IMG/VR virus record: IMGVR_UViG_3300031857_001578 | Coordinates: 1-21,906 of that record | Origin: a virus | DNA: 21,906 nucleotides | Direction: 5' to 3' (one strand) | Shown: one piece after another, positions 2,007 to 8,015 of the stretch | How positions within the stretch are numbered: the stretch's first letter is position 1 | Layout: each line of letters begins with the position of its first letter | The notes under the pieces: generated by a model | The model's input: only the letters and a program-made list of their open reading frames with translations | The model's database searches: none | What the model was told of the DNA's origin: nothing | Made by a program: the position numbers and the translations under genes

Positions 2007-2498
2007 TTAGGCGCGGGCCGTCAAGACGACCGGCCAGAGGTACAGCTCAAAGTTACTGACAACCCCGACCACCGCACTATCCGCGGGGTCGGTCATCTGC
2101 GGGATGGTCTGGCGCGTCCGGCTCCGGCCCACGACGAGCCCAGAGGACGAGAGCGTCAGCCCGGTGAGGCATTGATCCACAATGTCCATCGCCGACTCCA
2201 CGAGCGGGAGCTGGCTGTCGGGACGGCCCACCGCCTGCACCTCGAGGACCGCCGTCTCCCGGTAGCCGTTGAACGCCGAGAGACTGGTCCGGTCGAGCCG
2301 AAGGGTCAGGTACGGGAAGACCGGGTTGTCCGGCGCGGCCCGCACCCACACGCGATCCCCCACGAAGTCCTCCAGCATCTCGGTCTGGCTGGACTCATAC
2401 GCCAACAACTGCTGGCGCAGGGTCGCGTAGAGCTGAACCGTGGAGGCGGTCGACGGGAGCGGCGTACTACCTGGGACGACGTACTTGGGCAGCGTCAT
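2007..2498 (-). CDS. Tail terminator protein (gpU / gp17-like)
   Basis: This 163-residue protein starts at ATG 2498, overlapping the previous stop as ATGA. An N-terminal helix (STASTVQLYATLRQQLLAYE) is followed by strands such as FPYLTLRLDRTSLSAF and TAVLEVQAVG, a second helix (LPLVESAMDIVDQCLTG) and C-terminal strands ending FELYLWPVV. This pattern resembles the tail terminator / minor tail U family, which caps the tail tube and joins it to the head. Position between the gp10-like neck gene and the tail tube gene supports the call. Sequence identity to a named family was not tested, so the name rests on fold pattern and order. Confidence 0.7.
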   Translation of the reverse strand: MTLPKYVVPGSTPLPSTASTVQLYATLRQQLLAYESSQTEMLEDFVGDRVWVRAAPDNPVFPYLTLRLDRTSLSAFNGYRETAVLEVQAVGRPDSQLPLVESAMDIVDQCLTGLTLSSSGLVVGRSRTRQTIPQMTDPADSAVVGVVSNFELYLWPVVLTARA

Positions 2499-2986
2499 CG
2501 GACGGGTCTCCCGCGCTCGAGGTAGCGGTTCAGGACGCGGTTGTAGGTCGCCGTCATCGCCTGCAAGGAATCCAGCAGGACCGGCTTGAATATCTCGACC
2601 CGCTCATACTTACGCGTGAAGATATTCTGGTGACCCATCTCCCACGCGAGCGCGATCTGCCCGACCATCGACGGCATCTTGGTCGACATCGCCAGCTTTC
2701 GGAAGAACTTCTTCTGCGCCTTCTTCGATTTCGGCTTCGCCATAATCCCATCTGGGACGCCGACCTTGGTGTACCAGCCGTTGCCGCCGAACATCGGCTC
2801 CTCGCGCTGGACGTGCTGGACAATCTGCGCCGTCGAACGGAACGCACCCGAGGTGTAGTAGCCGCGCATCATCCGCTTCTTGATATTGCCCTCGTACAAG
2901 GCCGCCGCCGCATCGAGCGCCAGCCGCGAGGCGTCCCGATACTGCTTCAGAAACTCCGGCGACAAGTCGCGGACTTTCACGCTCAT
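2495..2986 (-). CDS. HK97 gp10-like neck / tail completion protein
   Basis: This 163-residue basic protein starts at ATG 2986 (ATGA overlap with 2983). It begins with a helix containing LKQYRDASRLALDAAAALYE, has a lysine-rich middle (MAKPKSKKAQKKFFRKLA) and ends with a stretch containing LAWEMGHQNIFTRKYER and RVEIFKPVLLDSLQAM. The RP/KP-containing C-terminal helix after a GH-type turn is typical of HK97 gp10-like proteins, which sit at the head-tail interface. In most siphophages this gene directly follows the head-closure gene; here eight genes stand between them. Confidence 0.65.
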   Translation of the reverse strand: MSVKVRDLSPEFLKQYRDASRLALDAAAALYEGNIKKRMMRGYYTSGAFRSTAQIVQHVQREEPMFGGNGWYTKVGVPDGIMAKPKSKKAQKKFFRKLAMSTKMPSMVGQIALAWEMGHQNIFTRKYERVEIFKPVLLDSLQAMTATYNRVLNRYLERGRPVR

Positions 2987-3342
2987 TGCGCGTACCGGGG
3001 CTCGGTCACGACCAGCGGCGTCACGACCTTGAGGTCGCTCTGCACCCCGCCCGTCACGATCTGATAGATGGTCTCGCCCGCGTAGCTCGCGAGGACCGCC
3101 GTCGACGTCCCCGGCACGACGTAGTAGTACGTCCCCGTGACGCTGCTCTCGGTCATATTCAAGCCCGTGAGCCCTGCGATGGCCGTCACCCCGAGCGCGT
3201 CCTCGTAGAACCCCGCCGTGACCGACGCGGCCCCCGTCCAGACGATGTAGGTGTTCGTCGTCGGGTCGTACTTCGACAAGGCCTGCCGCACCAGGTAGGC
3301 GTTGTTCGGGTGGATCTGCTTGCTCGTCGCGGTCGTTGCCAT
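2983..3342 (-). CDS. Unknown beta-rich virion-region protein (119 aa)
   Basis: It starts at ATG 3342 with GGGG 6-9 nt upstream. The N-terminus (TSKQIHPNNAYLVRQALSKY) is helical; the rest is beta-rich with many T, V, G and Y residues, for example VTGTYYYVVPGTSTAVLASY. There is no signal peptide, membrane segment or catalytic motif that I can see. It follows the 18-repeat protein by 8 nt and overlaps the gp10-like gene by 4 nt, so it is co-translated with neck and tail genes. A small virion or assembly protein is likely. I do not recognise the family. Confidence 0.75.
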   Translation of the reverse strand: MATTATSKQIHPNNAYLVRQALSKYDPTTNTYIVWTGAASVTAGFYEDALGVTAIAGLTGLNMTESSVTGTYYYVVPGTSTAVLASYAGETIYQIVTGGVQSDLKVVTPLVVTEPRYAQ

Positions 3343-3350
3343 CGTCGCCC

Positions 3351-4850
3351 CTAGACTAGTCCCTGTGAAGAATCTAGCACGGTGACCTCATTCGCGCCTC
3401 GGTCCCGCGCCACGACCTGCGGCCCGGACTCCTCAAGCACCCGCCGCGCCACCCCGCCCTCGTCCACCGCCCAGACCTCCGCGCCCGAGCGATCCTCAAC
3501 CAGCCCATACGGGGCGGACAAGTCGCGCCCCGTCGCCCGCACAAAGACCACCGGCGCAATAGCAATCGAGGGCCGGAAGCCCGTGTACGTCCCCGCCCCG
3601 ACCCCCGGACGGATGACCGTGCCCAGCACCACCGCGGGAGCCAGCCCGGCATACGTCCCCTGCCCGGTCTGCGTGGCCGCCACCTTCGGCAGCCGGACCA
3701 CCGGCGCGAACCCGGTGTACGTCCCAGCCCCCACCCCGGTCGCCACCGCCACGTTGGCCGAGACCACCACCGCGGGCGTCTGCCCCGTATACAGCCCCGC
3801 GCCGACGCCAGGCTGGACCCTGACGGCCTCGCGCAGGGTGGGGGCCTGTCCGGTATAGGTGCCCGTCCCGACCCCCGGCAGGACCGTGACCGCGCCCCCC
3901 GTGACGATGGTCGGCGCATACCCCGTGAGCGTGGCCTGCCCGGTCTGGGTGACCGCGGTCGTGGCGATAACGGGAGCCAGCCCCGTGTACGTCCCGGTCC
4001 CCGTCTGGGTCGCCGCCCGGACCCCATCGATCGCCGCGGGGGCGAAGCCCGTCGCCGTGACCTGCCCCGTCTGCGTCGAGACGACCACCGTCGAGAAGAT
4101 GGTCGGCGCGAACCCCGTATAGCTCCCGGCCCCCGTCCCCGGCTGGACGATGACCGCGTTGCCGACCACCACCGCGGGAGACTGGCCCGTATAGGTGCCC
4201 TGCCCCAGCGCGGTCGTGACGGTAATCGGCTCGGCCAAGCTCGGCGCGAAGCCCGTGTACGTCCCCAGACCCGTGGCCGTGGCGACAAACTGGTTCGCCG
4301 TCGTGACCACCGCGGGGGCTTGCCCGGTGTAGGTGCCGGTCCCCGTCTGCGTGGCCACGCTGGCCGAGGCGGTAATCGTGGGCGCGAAGCCCGTGTAACT
4401 GCCCGTCCCCGTCTGGCTCGAGGCGACCACCGGGAGCGACAGCGCGGGCGCAAATCCGGTATAGGTGCCCTGCCCCGTACTCGTGGGGACGGCGACCGGG
4501 GTGACCAGCGTGGGCGCGAGGCCCGTGTACGATCCCGTCCCGGTCTGCGTCGCGACATCGACCTCGATGGTCAACGTCGGCACGAAGCCGGTATACGTCC
4601 CCGTCCCGGTCTGGGTGCTCGCGCTCTGGTTGTTCCCCGCGATGACGGTCGGCGTCAGCCCTGTATAGGTGCCCGCCCCCGTCTCGGTGGCGACCGCGAT
4701 GTTGTTCGTGACCGCAACGGTCGGGACGAACCCCGTATACGTCCCCTCACCCAACCCCGTCGCGATGACTACCGGCGCGAGGTACGCCGCGACAAATCGC
4801 TGGGCGTTGAATGGCCCACGGTTCCTGATACCGGAGTTGCCGCGGGCCAT
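3351..4850 (-). CDS. Repeat protein with 18 TYTG-type units (probable virion fibre/decoration)
   Basis: This 499-residue protein starts at ATG 4850. After about 30 residues (ending RFVAAYLAPVVIA) it consists of 18 imperfect units of about 20-25 residues with the core TGxGTYTGFAPT followed by a variable strand. Variants include TATG (unit 11), TLTG (13), LYTG (15) and TYAG (17). A 69-residue C-terminal region without the repeat contains YGLVEDRSGAEVWAVDEGG and QVVARDRGANEVTVLDSS. Alternating small, Thr and hydrophobic residues suggest stacked beta strands such as a solenoid or string of hairpins. There are no cysteines or catalytic motifs. Location between head-closure and neck genes suggests a structural protein exposed on the virion; the function itself is inferred. 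The name of the family is unknown to me. Confidence 0.85.
   Translation of the reverse strand: MARGNSGIRNRGPFNAQRFVAAYLAPVVIATGLGEGTYTGFVPTVAVTNNIAVATETGAGTYTGLTPTVIAGNNQSASTQTGTGTYTGFVPTLTIEVDVATQTGTGSYTGLAPTLVTPVAVPTSTGQGTYTGFAPALSLPVVASSQTGTGSYTGFAPTITASASVATQTGTGTYTGQAPAVVTTANQFVATATGLGTYTGFAPSLAEPITVTTALGQGTYTGQSPAVVVGNAVIVQPGTGAGSYTGFAPTIFSTVVVSTQTGQVTATGFAPAAIDGVRAATQTGTGTYTGLAPVIATTAVTQTGQATLTGYAPTIVTGGAVTVLPGVGTGTYTGQAPTLREAVRVQPGVGAGLYTGQTPAVVVSANVAVATGVGAGTYTGFAPVVRLPKVAATQTGQGTYAGLAPAVVLGTVIRPGVGAGTYTGFRPSIAIAPVVFVRATGRDLSAPYGLVEDRSGAEVWAVDEGGVARRVLEESGPQVVARDRGANEVTVLDSSQGLV
3561..4760 (-). repeat. Eighteen tandem coding repeats of about 66 bp
   Basis: The region encodes residues 31-430 of the repeat protein. 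Units average 22 codons, with the most conserved DNA over the GGx ACx TAx ACx GGG block. Units differ at many third positions and in the variable half, so the array is not a recent simple expansion, but its length could change by recombination or slippage. Confidence 0.9.
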
Positions 4851-4858
4851 CGGTCAGC

Positions 4859-5098
4859 CTACTCCGGCTGCGCCATCACGACGTCAGACACCGGACGCCC
4901 GAGCCGCGTGGCCAGCGCCGCGCAGAGGTCGTCGTCCGTCCAGTCCGGCTTGTCGAGCGGGGCGTTCGTCTCGGAGAGCTGCTCGTTCCCCGTCCGCGGC
5001 ACGCTCACGCCCTGCACCTCGTCGGCGATGACATAGGCGTACTCGACCGCAACGGTCTGCGTAGCGGGCGTGATGTAATAGCTCGTGATGGTGATCAT
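4859..5098 (-). CDS. Unknown small protein (79 aa)
   Basis: ATG 5098 opens MITITSYYITPATQTVAVEY, a beta-rich beginning, followed by an acidic helical half containing DKPDWTDDDLCAALATRLGR. The gene sits 11 nt after the LamG-like gene and 8 nt before the repeat-protein gene, so it belongs to the accessory virion block. There is no clear ribosome binding site upstream; translation may depend on the preceding gene. No membrane segment or known motif is visible. It may be a chaperone or small subunit for one of its neighbours, but this is only a guess from position. Confidence 0.7.
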   Translation of the reverse strand: MITITSYYITPATQTVAVEYAYVIADEVQGVSVPRTGNEQLSETNAPLDKPDWTDDDLCAALATRLGRPVSDVVMAQPE

Positions 5099-5109
5099 CG
5101 GTTGTTGGG

Positions 5110-5808
5110 TTAGGCGATGGTGAATCGGAAAGGCGGTTCCGCGGCAGTGGGCAGCGCGGTCCCCGTAATGGTCAAGTCGTTGCCGCTTTCGCTTTCATCG
5201 CGAACCCCGCCCGCGGCGTTGAGCGTGTACTGCGTCGATTGCGCACCGAAGTACCGGCCCTTGCATCCCGGCACCGACTCGAACGGGTTCATCAAGTGAT
5301 GAATGTCGCTTGGGTCAATAACAACATCTGGGAAAACCTGAATGTCAAACAACTCGCCCCGATACTCCGGCAGCGTGGAGATGCTGTTTCCGATGCTTGT
5401 CGTCAGCCCCGTCGTGGTCGAGGTCAGGTCGCGGGTGTTCGTGCCTCGGGTCAATAGTTCGCCGTTGACATACACGAGCACCGCGTTGTCGGCATCATTG
5501 AACGTCACCGCGCAATGCGCCCACCGCCCGGAGGTTGCGAGCGCATTACCCGTGGTGTTCGTGGTCGTCAATCCTGCCGACCCGTAAATCACTACGCTGA
5601 CCTGCCCGTCGGTCTGGAACCCGACGCCGTATCCGTTGCGAGCAGTGCCTTGGTTGAAGTGTGCGAATACATTGCCCTGCGCCGGATACAGCGGGTTGAT
5701 GGAGTGATTCCACCGATGCCACCACGAAACCGTGAAGCCCGTCGTCGCGTTGAGACCGGTGAGCCCCGTGCGCGAAATCGTCTGCTGGTATTTCGAGATG
5801 GCGGGCAC
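5110..5808 (-). CDS. LamG / concanavalin-A-like lectin-fold virion protein
   Basis: This 232-residue protein uses a GTG start at 5808 with GGAGG about 10 nt upstream, overlapping the end of the preceding gene. It shows the pattern of LamG-type jelly rolls: GFTVSWWHRW (residues 24-33), GRWAHCAVTFND (94-105), LVYVNGELLT (111-120) and YRGELFDIQVF (149-159). Such domains bind carbohydrates or act as adhesive decoration in phage fibres. The C-terminal 60 residues (CKGRYFGAQSTQY, then DESESGNDLTITG) repeat a shorter beta pattern often found after LamG domains. G/C is low here: 60 of 120 in bases 5281-5400, compared with 42 of 60 at 7801-7860, which may mark recent acquisition. The ligand is unknown. 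Confidence 0.75.
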   Translation of the reverse strand: MPAISKYQQTISRTGLTGLNATTGFTVSWWHRWNHSINPLYPAQGNVFAHFNQGTARNGYGVGFQTDGQVSVVIYGSAGLTTTNTTGNALATSGRWAHCAVTFNDADNAVLVYVNGELLTRGTNTRDLTSTTTGLTTSIGNSISTLPEYRGELFDIQVFPDVVIDPSDIHHLMNPFESVPGCKGRYFGAQSTQYTLNAAGGVRDESESGNDLTITGTALPTAAEPPFRFTIA

Positions 5809-5810
5809 GT

Positions 5811-6281
5811 TTACTGCGCCTCCATCACAACCGGGACAATCTGGAACGTGAAGTTCGACGCCGTGGCATTGAGCGCCTGACCCGTCGCGTTCCAGACGAC
5901 GAACGAATATTTCGCCGAGAGATCGTAAACGAGGAAGGACTTGATGTAGGTCGTGTTTGTGGCGTTTGTCACGATGATACTCCCGACCTGCTCGGCGTTC
6001 GTCGGCTCGGTCGCGACCGCGGCGTCTGCCGTGCCGAGATTGCTGTCTGCTAGGTCCGTCGTCCCGTCGTTCGACCGACGAATCAGATACAGCTTGATGG
6101 GCGTACTCGCTGTTGGAGCCGTGCCTCCCGTCGTGGCGCGGAGGTAGACCTGTGCCGCTGGTGCGCGAGTCGTGGTGTTATCCACGACCGCGCAGATACG
6201 CCCCGCCCCGCTTGCCAGCGAGGTGAGCGTAATCGTCGGAGTGACGATTGTTTTATATGTGACCAGCGTTTGGGACGGCAT
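5811..6281 (-). CDS. Unknown beta-sandwich-like virion-region protein (156 aa)
   Basis: ATG 6281 overlaps the previous stop as TAATG. The protein is rich in T, V and A, has strands such as KTIVTPTITLTSLASG and YIKSFLVYDLSAKYSFVVWN, and ends FTFQIVPVVMEAQ. This looks like a beta sandwich with no signal peptide or membrane segment. Position in the block between head-closure and neck genes suggests a small virion decoration or a fibre subunit. It is more AT-rich than the head genes. I do not recognise the family, and no enzymatic motif is present. Confidence 0.75.
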   Translation of the reverse strand: MPSQTLVTYKTIVTPTITLTSLASGAGRICAVVDNTTTRAPAAQVYLRATTGGTAPTASTPIKLYLIRRSNDGTTDLADSNLGTADAAVATEPTNAEQVGSIIVTNATNTTYIKSFLVYDLSAKYSFVVWNATGQALNATASNFTFQIVPVVMEAQ

Positions 6282-6736
6282 TAGTCAGTCGTCGCGCCAG
6301 ACAGCGTGAAGATGCCCGAGGCGTTGAACTGGATCGTGAGCGTATTGCCGCTGGTCACAGTCACGTCAGCCGGGGCGGTGTCGAGGAGGCAGACGCAAAT
6401 CAGCACCTTCGACGCCGAGGTGTCGTCATAGATGACCGCGTAACGGGCCGTGATGGACCCGCCCGAGGCCGTCCACGTCGCGTCCGTCGCGTCGAACGTC
6501 GCCGTCCCGCTGCTCTGCGTCCACGTCACCCCGGACAGCGTGTTGCCGCCAGTGGTATAGCCGGTGCCGCTGGCGACCTCGTTGGTCAGCCCCGCATACG
6601 TCGACTCGGTGAGCGTGTTCGCGTCAGACGACGACGTGAACAGCGCAATCTTAAAGGTGTGCGAGTTCAGGTCGGTCGTGCCGTCACCGATGTAAAGCTT
6701 CGCGGTATCGTACAGCTTCCACTTGCCAGCAGCCAT
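6281..6736 (-). CDS. Conserved-looking phage structural protein (151 aa)
   Basis: It starts at ATG 6736 with GAGGA about 12 nt upstream. The sequence opens KWKLYDTAKLYIGDGT, then HTFKIALFTSSSD, LTNEVASGTGYTTGG and ends with a strand series including NTLTIQFNASGIFTLSGA. This arrangement (a short-peptide KIALFTS strand, then a TNEV-GTGYTTGG turn, then a terminal TIQFNASGIF strand) is one I associate with a widespread family of small phage virion proteins found near head or tail genes. The exact role is unknown. The stop overlaps the next start as TAATG. Confidence 0.75.
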   Translation of the reverse strand: MAAGKWKLYDTAKLYIGDGTTDLNSHTFKIALFTSSSDANTLTESTYAGLTNEVASGTGYTTGGNTLSGVTWTQSSGTATFDATDATWTASGGSITARYAVIYDDTSASKVLICVCLLDTAPADVTVTSGNTLTIQFNASGIFTLSGATTD

Positions 6737-6772
6737 CGTGCTATCCTCGTGAGGGGGTAAAGGGTCGGAAGG

Positions 6773-7033
6773 TTAGAGGGTCATCGCCTGCGTCAATCGC
6801 TCGAACGCCATCGCGGTCGTGGGACCGGTCGCCGTCACCACCTGCCCGGACGCCGCCTCCCAGCGGAGCGCGATCGCCGCGTCCCCCACCGGCACCGCGG
6901 CCAGCGTCCCGCCGTAGGTGGCAACGAACCGCTCGGCGCGAGCGCGGTCGGTCGGCCAGAAGCCGGAACGCCGAACGTCGTGCCCGCAAAGCTGCCGGGT
7001 GTCGAGGCCCGACACGAACTCCTCGTCGATCAT
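6773..7033 (-). CDS. Unknown small protein (86 aa)
   Basis: ATG 7033 overlaps the preceding stop as ATGA. The protein opens MIDEEFVSGLDTRQLCGHDV and continues with mixed helical and beta sequence including RAERFVATYGG and IALRWEAASGQ. It has a single cysteine and no membrane segment. It lies between two beta-rich virion-like genes and is probably co-translated with them. A 36-nt gap follows. I cannot assign a function. GC content and codon use match the surrounding head genes rather than the AT-richer genes that follow. Confidence 0.7.
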   Translation of the reverse strand: MIDEEFVSGLDTRQLCGHDVRRSGFWPTDRARAERFVATYGGTLAAVPVGDAAIALRWEAASGQVVTATGPTTAMAFERLTQAMTL

Positions 7034-7575
7034 CGGATGAAGCCCACCGCGGAGAGCGTCAAGCTGGTCGCCGTGACGCTCGTGGTGTCCGTCTCATTCC
7101 GCACATAGACCGAGATGATGTCGTTCGCCGCGGTCGGGATCAGCGTCGAGAGCGAGAACCCGTAGCCGTCGCCCGAACTCGACAGGACCGCCGAGATGTG
7201 GACGTTGGTCAGCGGCGTCCCGTTCTTGGCGAACGTCAGGCCGTAGGTCTTGTTATTCGCCGCACAGACCAGCTCGACGTTGGCCGTCACAAGCAGCACC
7301 TGATTGACCGCCTTGGTCGCTCGGAGTTCGTTGTTCGCGTACTGCGAGAACCCGTCCTGTCCGAGCGAGGTGTCCAGCGCCGTCGTCCCGGCCAGCTTGT
7401 ACCAGGTATCGGTGAGCGCGAACGTGGTCGCCGCCGACGCCGTGAGGTCCAACTGGCCCCGGCTCGGGAACAGGCTGACCACCACGTCCCGGATGTCCTC
7501 GGGGCTGATGTCGCCCGACGTGTTGTCCGGCAACTGCGCGAGGAGCGCGGATAGAACCTTCGGGGTCTCTGCCAT
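7030..7575 (-). CDS. Virion accessory protein with fibre-type N-terminus and C1q-like C-terminus
   Basis: ATG 7575 overlaps the head-closure stop as TAATG. The N-terminal 40 residues contain LPDNTSGDISPEDIRDVVVS, a helix typical of the attachment region of phage fibre or whisker proteins. Residues from about 45 on are a run of strands (TTFALTDTWYKLAGT, NQVLLVTANVELVC, AVLSSSGDGYGFSLSTL, ISVYVRNETD) with the spacing of a TNF/C1q-like jelly roll. Such proteins trimerise and can bind surface sugars. This is the first gene of the accessory block after head closure, suggesting a head or neck fibre. The N-terminal match is the firmer part; the jelly-roll call is inference. Confidence 0.7.
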   Translation of the reverse strand: MAETPKVLSALLAQLPDNTSGDISPEDIRDVVVSLFPSRGQLDLTASAATTFALTDTWYKLAGTTALDTSLGQDGFSQYANNELRATKAVNQVLLVTANVELVCAANNKTYGLTFAKNGTPLTNVHISAVLSSSGDGYGFSLSTLIPTAANDIISVYVRNETDTTSVTATSLTLSAVGFIR

Positions 7576-8015
7576 TACTCGAAGCCCTCGTCAAACCCGG
7601 TGGTGAACGCCGACGTCGCGACGAGATGCACCCCGTCCGAAACGTCTGCCGCATCGTACAAGATATACTGCCCGTAGGCCGTGGGGTCGATGGCCTCAAG
7701 CGTCACCTGCTGACAGGCCATCTGCCGCACCGCATAGACCCCGCGCACGAACCAGAGGGTCTCGTCCCCCTCGAGCTTGACGATCCCATACGGGTCGACC
7801 GGCACATAGTCCGCGACCGTGGCGACCGCGGTTGTCCGGCTGTCCGTATGCGCCTGCGGAGCCCCGGCCACCGTGAAGGTGTTCGCCGTGGCATCGACGC
7901 GCCCCCAATAGACGCCCGTCTTCGTGTAGACGGGGCGCTGGAAGCCGTCGGCCCCGTCGTCCCCCCGGCTGAAGAAGCCGAGCCGCTGGTCCAGCAGGCC
8001 GGGTGCGATATACAT
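7575..8015 (-). CDS. Head closure / head-tail joining protein
   Basis: The true start is ATG 8015, which overlaps the connector stop as TAATG; the frame stays open upstream but that part is a shadow. The 146-residue protein begins MYIAPGLLDQRLGFFSRGDD, followed by TKTGVYWGRVDATAN and later YGIVKLEGDETLWFVRGVY. This matches the small beta-barrel head-closure proteins (SPP1 gp16 / HK97 gp7 type): an N-terminal LLDxR segment followed by a 'GxxWGRV' strand. It plugs the connector and gives a binding surface for the tail. Placement directly after the connector supports this. Confidence 0.75.
   Translation of the reverse strand: MYIAPGLLDQRLGFFSRGDDGADGFQRPVYTKTGVYWGRVDATANTFTVAGAPQAHTDSRTTAVATVADYVPVDPYGIVKLEGDETLWFVRGVYAVRQMACQQVTLEAIDPTAYGQYILYDAADVSDGVHLVATSAFTTGFDEGFE

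What the first reader, a model, noticed from the sequence alone, without database searches (positions are those of the whole stretch)
2983..7575. Eight-gene accessory virion block between head-closure and neck genes
In HK97/siphophage order the head-closure gene is normally followed by the gp10-like and terminator genes. Here eight genes, mostly beta-rich and including a LamG-like lectin, a C1q-like protein with a fibre-type N-terminus and an 18-repeat protein, stand between them. All are on the same strand, with short gaps or overlaps. This suggests a set of head/neck decorations or whiskers that may bind host or environmental glycans.
Basis: partly seen in the sequence, partly recalled or inferred. 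Interest (0 to 1): 0.7.

Follow-up and report, generated by a model that had tools for sequence, protein, structure and literature searches.

The report
Swappable adhesin-fibre cassette among neck genes
An uncultured, probably freshwater phage carries, in the middle of its head-to-tail joining genes, a set of genes that most likely builds an optional sugar-binding fibre; close relatives carry entirely different fibre genes at the same spot, or none, so this looks like a plug-in slot for changing what the phage sticks to.

Summary
In detail: eight same-strand genes (7575-2983) lie between the head-closure and Neck1/gp10-like genes of a siphophage-type head-tail gene cluster. Comparison with 61 complete intervals from related uncultured phages (27 distinct) splits the block. 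g1 (TNF/C1q-like jelly roll) and g2 are standing genes, present even in relatives with nothing else there (11 of 27). g3-g8 are the variable cassette (16 of 27; gap 1.3-6.6 kb). Relatives carry clear tail-fibre, fibre-assembly, endosialidase-chaperone, lyase-like and LamG genes there. In two relatives without the cassette, the same fibre domains sit fused to the tail-tip protein (52% identity over 317 aa). g8, in every cassette, is a predicted immunoglobulin-type sandwich whose top structural matches are neck-collar and lateral-fibre anchor proteins. A shaft-like protein with 20/22/24-residue repeats and a conserved C-terminal tail usually stands directly before it. The LamG gene g5 was exchanged by recombination between near-identical phages (dS 1.13 against 0.06-0.16 in most flanking genes). 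Best reading: an optional, swappable adhesin-fibre module resembling the lactococcal neck passage structure, but split over several genes. An adhesive virion fibre is well supported; attachment at the neck rather than the tail is not shown. New variant of a known kind.

The parts
7030..7575 (-). g1, 181 aa: N-terminal helix segment (nearly invariant PKVLSALLAQLPDNT.G.IS.EDIRD.VVSL) plus TNF/C1q-like jelly roll; standing gene of this phage subgroup, not part of the variable cassette
   Evidence: alignment A2; AF2 pLDDT 81, jelly roll 35-181; VIA Z 15.1 EDA-A1, 14.2 cyanophage A4 portal-tail chain, 13.9 A-1(L) short tail fibre; phrog_24754 tail fiber E 3.7e-8
6773..7033 (-). g2, 86 aa: small conserved protein of unknown role; present in nearly all relatives, with or without the cassette
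   Evidence: no family hits
6281..6736 (-). g3, 151 aa: phrog_644 family, first gene of most large cassettes; relatives in other phages lie beside minor-tail, needle or fibre genes
   Evidence: phrog_644 E 2.1e-30; contexts; alignment A3
5811..6281 (-). g4, 156 aa: cassette protein, low GC3 island with g5, raised dS
5110..5808 (-). g5, 232 aa: LamG/ConA-like lectin-type domain; candidate glycan-binding tip; most diverged gene, replaced by recombination
   Evidence: Pfam Laminin_G_3 E 8.7e-16; phmmer to pentraxin PTX3 and S-layer protein structures E 5e-4 to 7e-4; dS 1.13 against 0.06-0.16 in most flanking genes; GC3 0.76
4859..5098 (-). g6, 79 aa: small cassette protein, also in the cassettes of L054, L059, L085, L107, L122, L125 and L126
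3351..4850 (-). g7, 499 aa: shaft-like repeat protein, 18 repeats of 20/22/24 residues and a conserved C-terminal tail (RD.SGPY...D.S...)
2983..3342 (-). g8, 119 aa: Ig-type beta sandwich, candidate anchor/ring protein; in 16/16 expanded cassettes, 0/11 minimal ones
   Evidence: alignment A1; AF2 pLDDT 86.5; fold matches Sf14 gp30 whisker Z 9.3, Bas63 collar Z 8.6, DT57C and T5 fibre-anchor chains Z 7.7 and 7.4; distribution
7575..8015 (-). head-closure gene (upstream flank, assigned by position)
2495..2986 (-). gp10/Neck1-like gene (downstream flank)
   Evidence: distant homologue hits phrog_5 E 0.0016; synteny

Best explanation
g3-g8 form a swappable adhesin-fibre module of the virion, inserted in the neck-gene cluster. 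Proposed mechanism: g8 (Ig-type sandwich) forms a ring or anchor on the virion, most likely at the neck beside gp10/terminator. g7 is the fibre shaft, with a conserved C-terminal tail that docks on g8, perhaps by donating strands as LtfA does to LtfC in DT57C. g5 (LamG) is the glycan-binding tip, with g3, g4 and g6 as small connector or tip proteins. Exchange of the middle genes changes what the phage sticks to. Shown here: gene order, the optional and variable content, the fibre genes in the orthologous slot, fibre domains shared with the tail tip, recombination at g5, repeat register, the tail-g8 linkage and the predicted folds. Inferred: presence in virions, docking, location at the neck, glycan binding.
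For: (1) The same HC-gp10 slot in L051, L054 and L078 holds fibre-type proteins (phrog_6722 E 6.7e-31; fibre assembly phrog_4912 1.2e-10; phrog_5668 7.3e-17; Peptidase_S74 1.8e-6); L066 has a PL14-like protein and L068 a LamG protein. (2) In two relatives without the cassette (L091, L088) the tail-tip protein is 2435 and >=2218 aa, against 1108 aa in this phage, and carries the fibre domains of L051/L054 (52% over 317 aa, E 2.5e-47; 81% over 85 aa). (3) g8 is in 16/16 expanded and 0/11 minimal intervals, never elsewhere; its six best Foldseek PDB hits are all phage collar or tail-tip chains, VIA Z 9.3 and 8.6 for Felix-O1-type collar/whisker proteins. (4) The protein before g8 has a conserved C-terminal tail in 14 of 16 cassettes (13 by HMM, L108 by eye), 0-17 nt from g8 where the HMM detects it; an HMM built without the window still finds it in g7 (i-E 5e-4). 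(5) Repeat spacings are even (20/22/24 or multiples) in 96 of 97 cases over seven proteins, as alternating beta strands require. (6) dS peaks at g5 and g4-g5 have GC3 0.76 against 0.82-0.95 elsewhere. (7) g3 relatives flank minor-tail, needle or fibre genes in other phages.
Against: No virion data. g8 has no detectable profile similarity to NPS, BppU, LtfC or gp30; its match is fold-level, and Z 9.3 is only a little above the 7-8 typical of models without a clear match. The window's own cassette lacks the large fibre genes of L051/L054/L078. Neck location rests on gene position and one fold match. The complementarity with tail-tip length is not general: L095 (minimal) has a tip of only about 1460 aa.
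Confidence: 0.68

Rival explanations
1. The fibres are ordinary side fibres attached to the tail or tail tip; only their genes happen to lie among the neck genes.
For: g8's fold also matches lateral-fibre anchors (DT57C and T5 tail-tip chains, Z 7.7 and 7.4; Foldseek ranks these first); fibre domains are shared with the tail-tip protein; TP901-1 shows that gene position need not equal virion position.
Against: g8 is always upstream of Neck1/gp10 within the same interval and never in the tail-tip region; the two best VIA matches are neck collar/whisker chains.
Confidence: 0.3
2. g3-g8 decorate the capsid surface (Hoc-like or head fibres) rather than neck or tail.
For: beta-rich proteins with Ig and lectin folds occur as capsid decorations, e.g. 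Hoc-like gp20 of Sf14 (PMC11821841); phrog_3758 'virion structural protein, head and packaging' genes occur in some related cassettes.
Against: fibre, fibre-assembly and S74 chaperone genes in the same slot of relatives; no similarity found to capsid-binding domains.
Confidence: 0.1
3. The slot is a neutral insertion hotspot holding unrelated, possibly non-structural genes (morons).
For: highly variable content and length; several proteins have no family.
Against: recurring architecture (repeat protein plus g8 towards the end, g3 at the start of the larger ones), same strand, tight packing, consistently fibre/lectin/lyase-type content; purifying selection on the window genes that could be compared (dN/dS 0-0.40 against L002).
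Confidence: 0.07

Closest known systems
Neck passage structure (NPS) of lactococcal 936 and TP901-1 phages
   Same: Optional (73 of 113 936-group phages), BppU-type beta-sandwich collar with fibres ending in swappable carbohydrate-binding or pectin/alginate-enzyme-like domains (PMC6669499); in ASCC284 the gene sits among head-tail joining genes.
   Different: There one 500-900 aa polypeptide; here anchor, shaft and lectin are separate genes, placed before gp10 instead of after the terminator; no sequence or profile similarity; neck attachment unproven here.
LtfC / p132 lateral tail-fibre anchor ring of T5 and DT57C
   Same: Stand-alone ~120-140 aa beta-sandwich encoded next to its fibre gene (PMC10713586).
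   Different: In T5-like phages it sits at the tail tip; profile comparison negative.
Sf14 gp30/gp31 neck whiskers and Bas63 collar protein (Felix-O1-like myophages)
   Same: Best VIA structural match of g8 (Z 9.3, 2.8 A over 97 residues); a neck appendage (PMC11821841).
   Different: Myophage; whisker genes lie right after the portal gene; profile comparison negative.
C1q/TNF-like tips of phage fibres (cyanophage A-1(L) short tail fibre CBD; a chain of the cyanophage A4 portal-tail complex)
   Same: Jelly roll of g1, Z 13.9-14.2.
   Different: g1 is a small stand-alone protein, kept by relatives that lack the cassette.

Membership tests
Neck passage structure (NPS) | BppU_N-type beta-sandwich collar domain | tested here: inconclusive
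   g8 fold is Ig/BppU_N/LtfC-like, but hhalign to the NPS N-terminus gives Prob 0.15 and to BppU 1.25
Neck passage structure (NPS) | collar domain, shaft and binding domain in one polypeptide | tested here: not met
   separate genes g8, g7, g5
Neck passage structure (NPS) | optional presence with swappable carbohydrate-binding modules | tested here: met
   16 of 27 intervals; LamG, PL14-like, fibre variants; allele exchange at g5; sugar binding itself not tested
Neck passage structure (NPS) | located at the head-tail junction of the virion | not testable with these tools
   needs proteomics or cryo-EM
LtfC/p132 fibre anchor | small beta-sandwich ring protein encoded next to the fibre gene it anchors | tested here: inconclusive
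   fold matches and adjacency to the repeat protein; profile comparison negative
LamG/ConA-like lectin domain (g5) | Pfam Laminin_G_3 above gathering cut-off | tested here: met
   58.9 bits, cut-off 27.6; sugar binding not tested
C1q/TNF jelly roll (g1) | jelly-roll fold of the TNF/C1q type | tested here: met
   AF2 model, VIA Z up to 15.1; trimerisation not tested
Tail fibre genes in the slot (relatives) | match to curated tail-fibre families | tested here: met
   L051, L078; for g3-g8 of the window itself there is no tail-fibre family match

The most novel reading that the evidence does not exclude
A multi-gene ('split') neck passage structure in uncultured siphophages: a free-standing Ig ring protein (g8) serves as a universal socket at the neck into which different fibre sets plug, and the adhesin can move in evolution between this neck socket and a fusion to the tail-tip protein.
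Probability: 0.35. Interest if true: 0.65.

Novelty: new variant of a known kind. Interest (0 to 1): 0.52.

Why it matters
It gives a concrete, testable case of where host-binding modules can be placed on a siphophage: a socket gene (g8) that marks every cassette, fibre sets that differ between relatives, and loss of the cassette in a clade in which two members have a tail tip that carries the same fibre domains. None of the tested conserved or cassette genes (MCP, g1, g4, g8) has a close homologue in cultured phages, so this is adhesion biology not represented in the model systems.

Tried and rejected
DNA search (distant mode) of the block in 50,697 phage records: no match. g1, g4 and g8 by tblastn in phages: none. 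g8 in bacterial genomes: none. PDB sequence search with g1, g3 and g8 profiles: nothing meaningful. hhalign of g8 against NPS, BppU, LtfC and gp30 families: negative, at the level of the control alignments. hhalign of the neck genes against TP901-1 single sequences: uninformative. A general inverse relation between cassette size and tail-tip length: suggestive in L091 and L088, contradicted by L095, so not claimed. Repeated independent loss of the cassette: the HC+terminator tree needs only one change, so 'accessory' means variable content plus one loss; the tree is small and rooted on a distant sequence. Positive selection on g5: rejected, dN/dS is 0.24; the divergence is mostly synonymous and points to recombination. 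Host: one 3.8 kb MCP-bearing contig in an Actinomycetales MAG, too weak to assign.
Full report
WHAT IS THERE. The window is a complete 21.9 kb IMG/VR record, a fragment of a phage genome. The structural genes run on the - strand: TerL, portal, protease, MCP, glycosyltransferase, adaptor, head closure (HC), block g1-g8, gp10-like, terminator, MTP, chaperones. All eight block genes are on one strand, tightly packed. Adaptor and MTP are supported by family hits; gp10 by a distant relative hitting phrog_5 'tail completion or Neck1'; HC and terminator only by position. TP901-1 shows the reference order adaptor - closure - Neck1 - terminator - MTP with nothing inserted.

SYNTENY. An MCP search gave 80 related uncultured loci, a g8-profile search 37 loci, many of them new. 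Cultured phages have no close relatives. Of 61 complete HC-gp10 intervals, 27 are distinct. Eleven are minimal (775-796 bp: g1 and g2 only). Sixteen are expanded (1.27-6.6 kb). So g1 and g2 are standing genes; deeper relatives (L051, L059, L066, L068, L078) lack g1. g3-g8 are the variable cassette. g8 occurs in all 16 expanded and none of the 11 minimal intervals, and never outside the interval. A tree of HC + terminator needs one change for g8 presence (shuffled labels: mean 8.8, minimum 4), that is, one loss in the clade of minimal phages as rooted on L141.

WHAT THE SLOT HOLDS ELSEWHERE. L051: an 824 aa tail-fibre protein (phrog_6722 E 6.7e-31), a Gly-rich/minor-tail-like protein, a fibre-assembly-like protein (phrog_8716 and phrog_4912), then a repeat protein and g8. 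L078: a 1211 aa fibre with S74 endosialidase chaperone. L066: a polysaccharide-lyase-14-like protein; L068: a LamG protein. L028 and L054: 'virion structural' phrog_3758 genes. These are adhesion-apparatus genes, which gives the slot its meaning even where individual genes, as in the window, have no family.

LINK TO THE TAIL TIP. A near-identical contig (G001) extends the window downstream: tape measure, a 146 aa protein, a 1108 aa tail-tip protein, a glycosyltransferase. Two phages without the cassette, G009 (L042/L091) and G003 (L013/L088), have tail-tip proteins of 2435 and at least 2218 aa. Their C-terminal extensions are homologous to the cassette fibres of L051 and L054 (52% over 317 aa, E 2.5e-47; 81% over 85 aa). 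The same fibre domains are thus used in the neck-cluster gene of one phage and the tail-tip gene of another. A minimal phage with an ordinary tail tip (L095) shows that this is not a strict rule.

PROTEINS OF THE WINDOW'S CASSETTE. g8: AF2 model (pLDDT 86.5) with an Ig-type sandwich. The first six Foldseek PDB hits are all chains of T5/DT57C tail tips or the Bas63 connector (E 1.6e-4 to 3.6e-3). By VIA-align, Sf14 neck Z 9.3 (2.8 A, 97 residues), Bas63 Z 8.6, DT57C Z 7.7, T5 Z 7.4. The Sf14 chain is, by length and numbering, gp30, a whisker protein, and the matching Bas63 chain is named collar protein (PMC11821841). BFVD hits include BppU_N and LtfC/p132-type annotations. Profile comparison with NPS, BppU, LtfC and gp30 is negative, so this is a fold resemblance, not shown homology.

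g7: 18 repeats. All 17 spacings are 20, 22 or 24 residues; across seven such proteins 96 of 97 spacings are even, as expected if each residue must keep its inside/outside side of a beta strand. (The motifs were fitted per protein and the proteins are related, so these are not independent counts.) Its C-terminal tail (RD.SGPY...D.S...) is shared by 14 of 16 cassettes (13 by HMM, L108 by inspection), 0-17 nt before g8 in the HMM-detected cases and with no other convincing match among 12,352 ORFs. An HMM trained without the window still detects it in g7 (i-E 5e-4). The constant pair repeat-tail plus g8 suggests that the tail docks on g8, comparable with the strand donation of LtfA to LtfC in DT57C (PMC10713586).

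g5: LamG, E 8.7e-16. Against L002 (93% nucleotide identity, MCP 98%) dS is 0.06-0.16 in most flanking genes, 0.21 in the glycosyltransferase gene, 0.30 in g3, 0.49 in g4, 1.13 in g5, then 0.13 in g6 and 0.12 in g7. This is the footprint of a recombinational exchange centred on g5. g4-g5 also have GC3 0.76 against 0.82-0.95 elsewhere. g3: phrog_644. Relatives stand directly after or near minor tail proteins in mycobacteriophages, between needle-head and needle genes in Pam1, beside a tail protein in EBPR siphovirus 2, between capsid and tail-tube genes or near a pectate lyase in spring-water podophages. g1: jelly roll of the TNF/C1q type (Z up to 15.1; short-tail-fibre CBD of A-1(L) 13.9).

CLOSEST KNOWN SYSTEM. 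The neck passage structure of 936/TP901-1 phages is optional, has a BppU-type sandwich ring as collar, trimeric shafts and swappable carbohydrate-binding or enzyme-like ends (PMC6669499). In the 936 phage ASCC284 its gene sits among the head-tail joining genes, in TP901-1 far from them. The window's cassette shares the logic but is split over separate genes, at a different position, without detectable sequence similarity. It works like an NPS; membership is not claimed, because one defining feature (single polypeptide) is not met and another (neck location) was not testable.

CONFIDENCE. Adhesin/fibre cassette of the virion: about 0.85 by my judgement. Full model with g8 as anchor: 0.68. Attached at the neck specifically: about 0.5, hence the novel reading at 0.35.

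Noticed in passing
window 9935-8556 (-): Glycosyltransferase-like ORF between MCP and adaptor; several relatives keep only a ~90 aa small protein homologous to its N-terminal part, so the GT looks inserted or fused. Its N-terminal ~140 residues also hold most of its differences from L002.
   Followed up: partly
L086:9854-11089; L087:11503-13709: One or two further glycosyltransferase-like genes follow the tail-tip gene in this phage group (judged from translations); targets unknown.
   Followed up: no
window 16934-16293 and 20013-19381 (-): A family-2-like glycosyltransferase and a methyltransferase-like gene upstream of the terminase genes (judged from translations only).
   Followed up: no
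L149:3998-5872 (Stenotrophomonas phage TPWB-10): A protein with an NPS-like N-terminus (31% to TP901-1 NPS, E 1e-6) after the tail protein in a Gram-negative phage.
   Followed up: no
L153: 3.8 kb contig in an Actinomycetales MAG encodes a 72% MCP relative; the only hint at a host, possibly a binning artefact.
   Followed up: no
L087, L090, L093, L095 tail-tip C-termini: Collagen-like GPTG repeats end the tail-tip protein in several relatives.
   Followed up: no
L094 (G014), 34 kb record: MCP and terminator lie at opposite ends of the record in the same orientation, so this record may be a circularly permuted near-complete genome.
   Followed up: no
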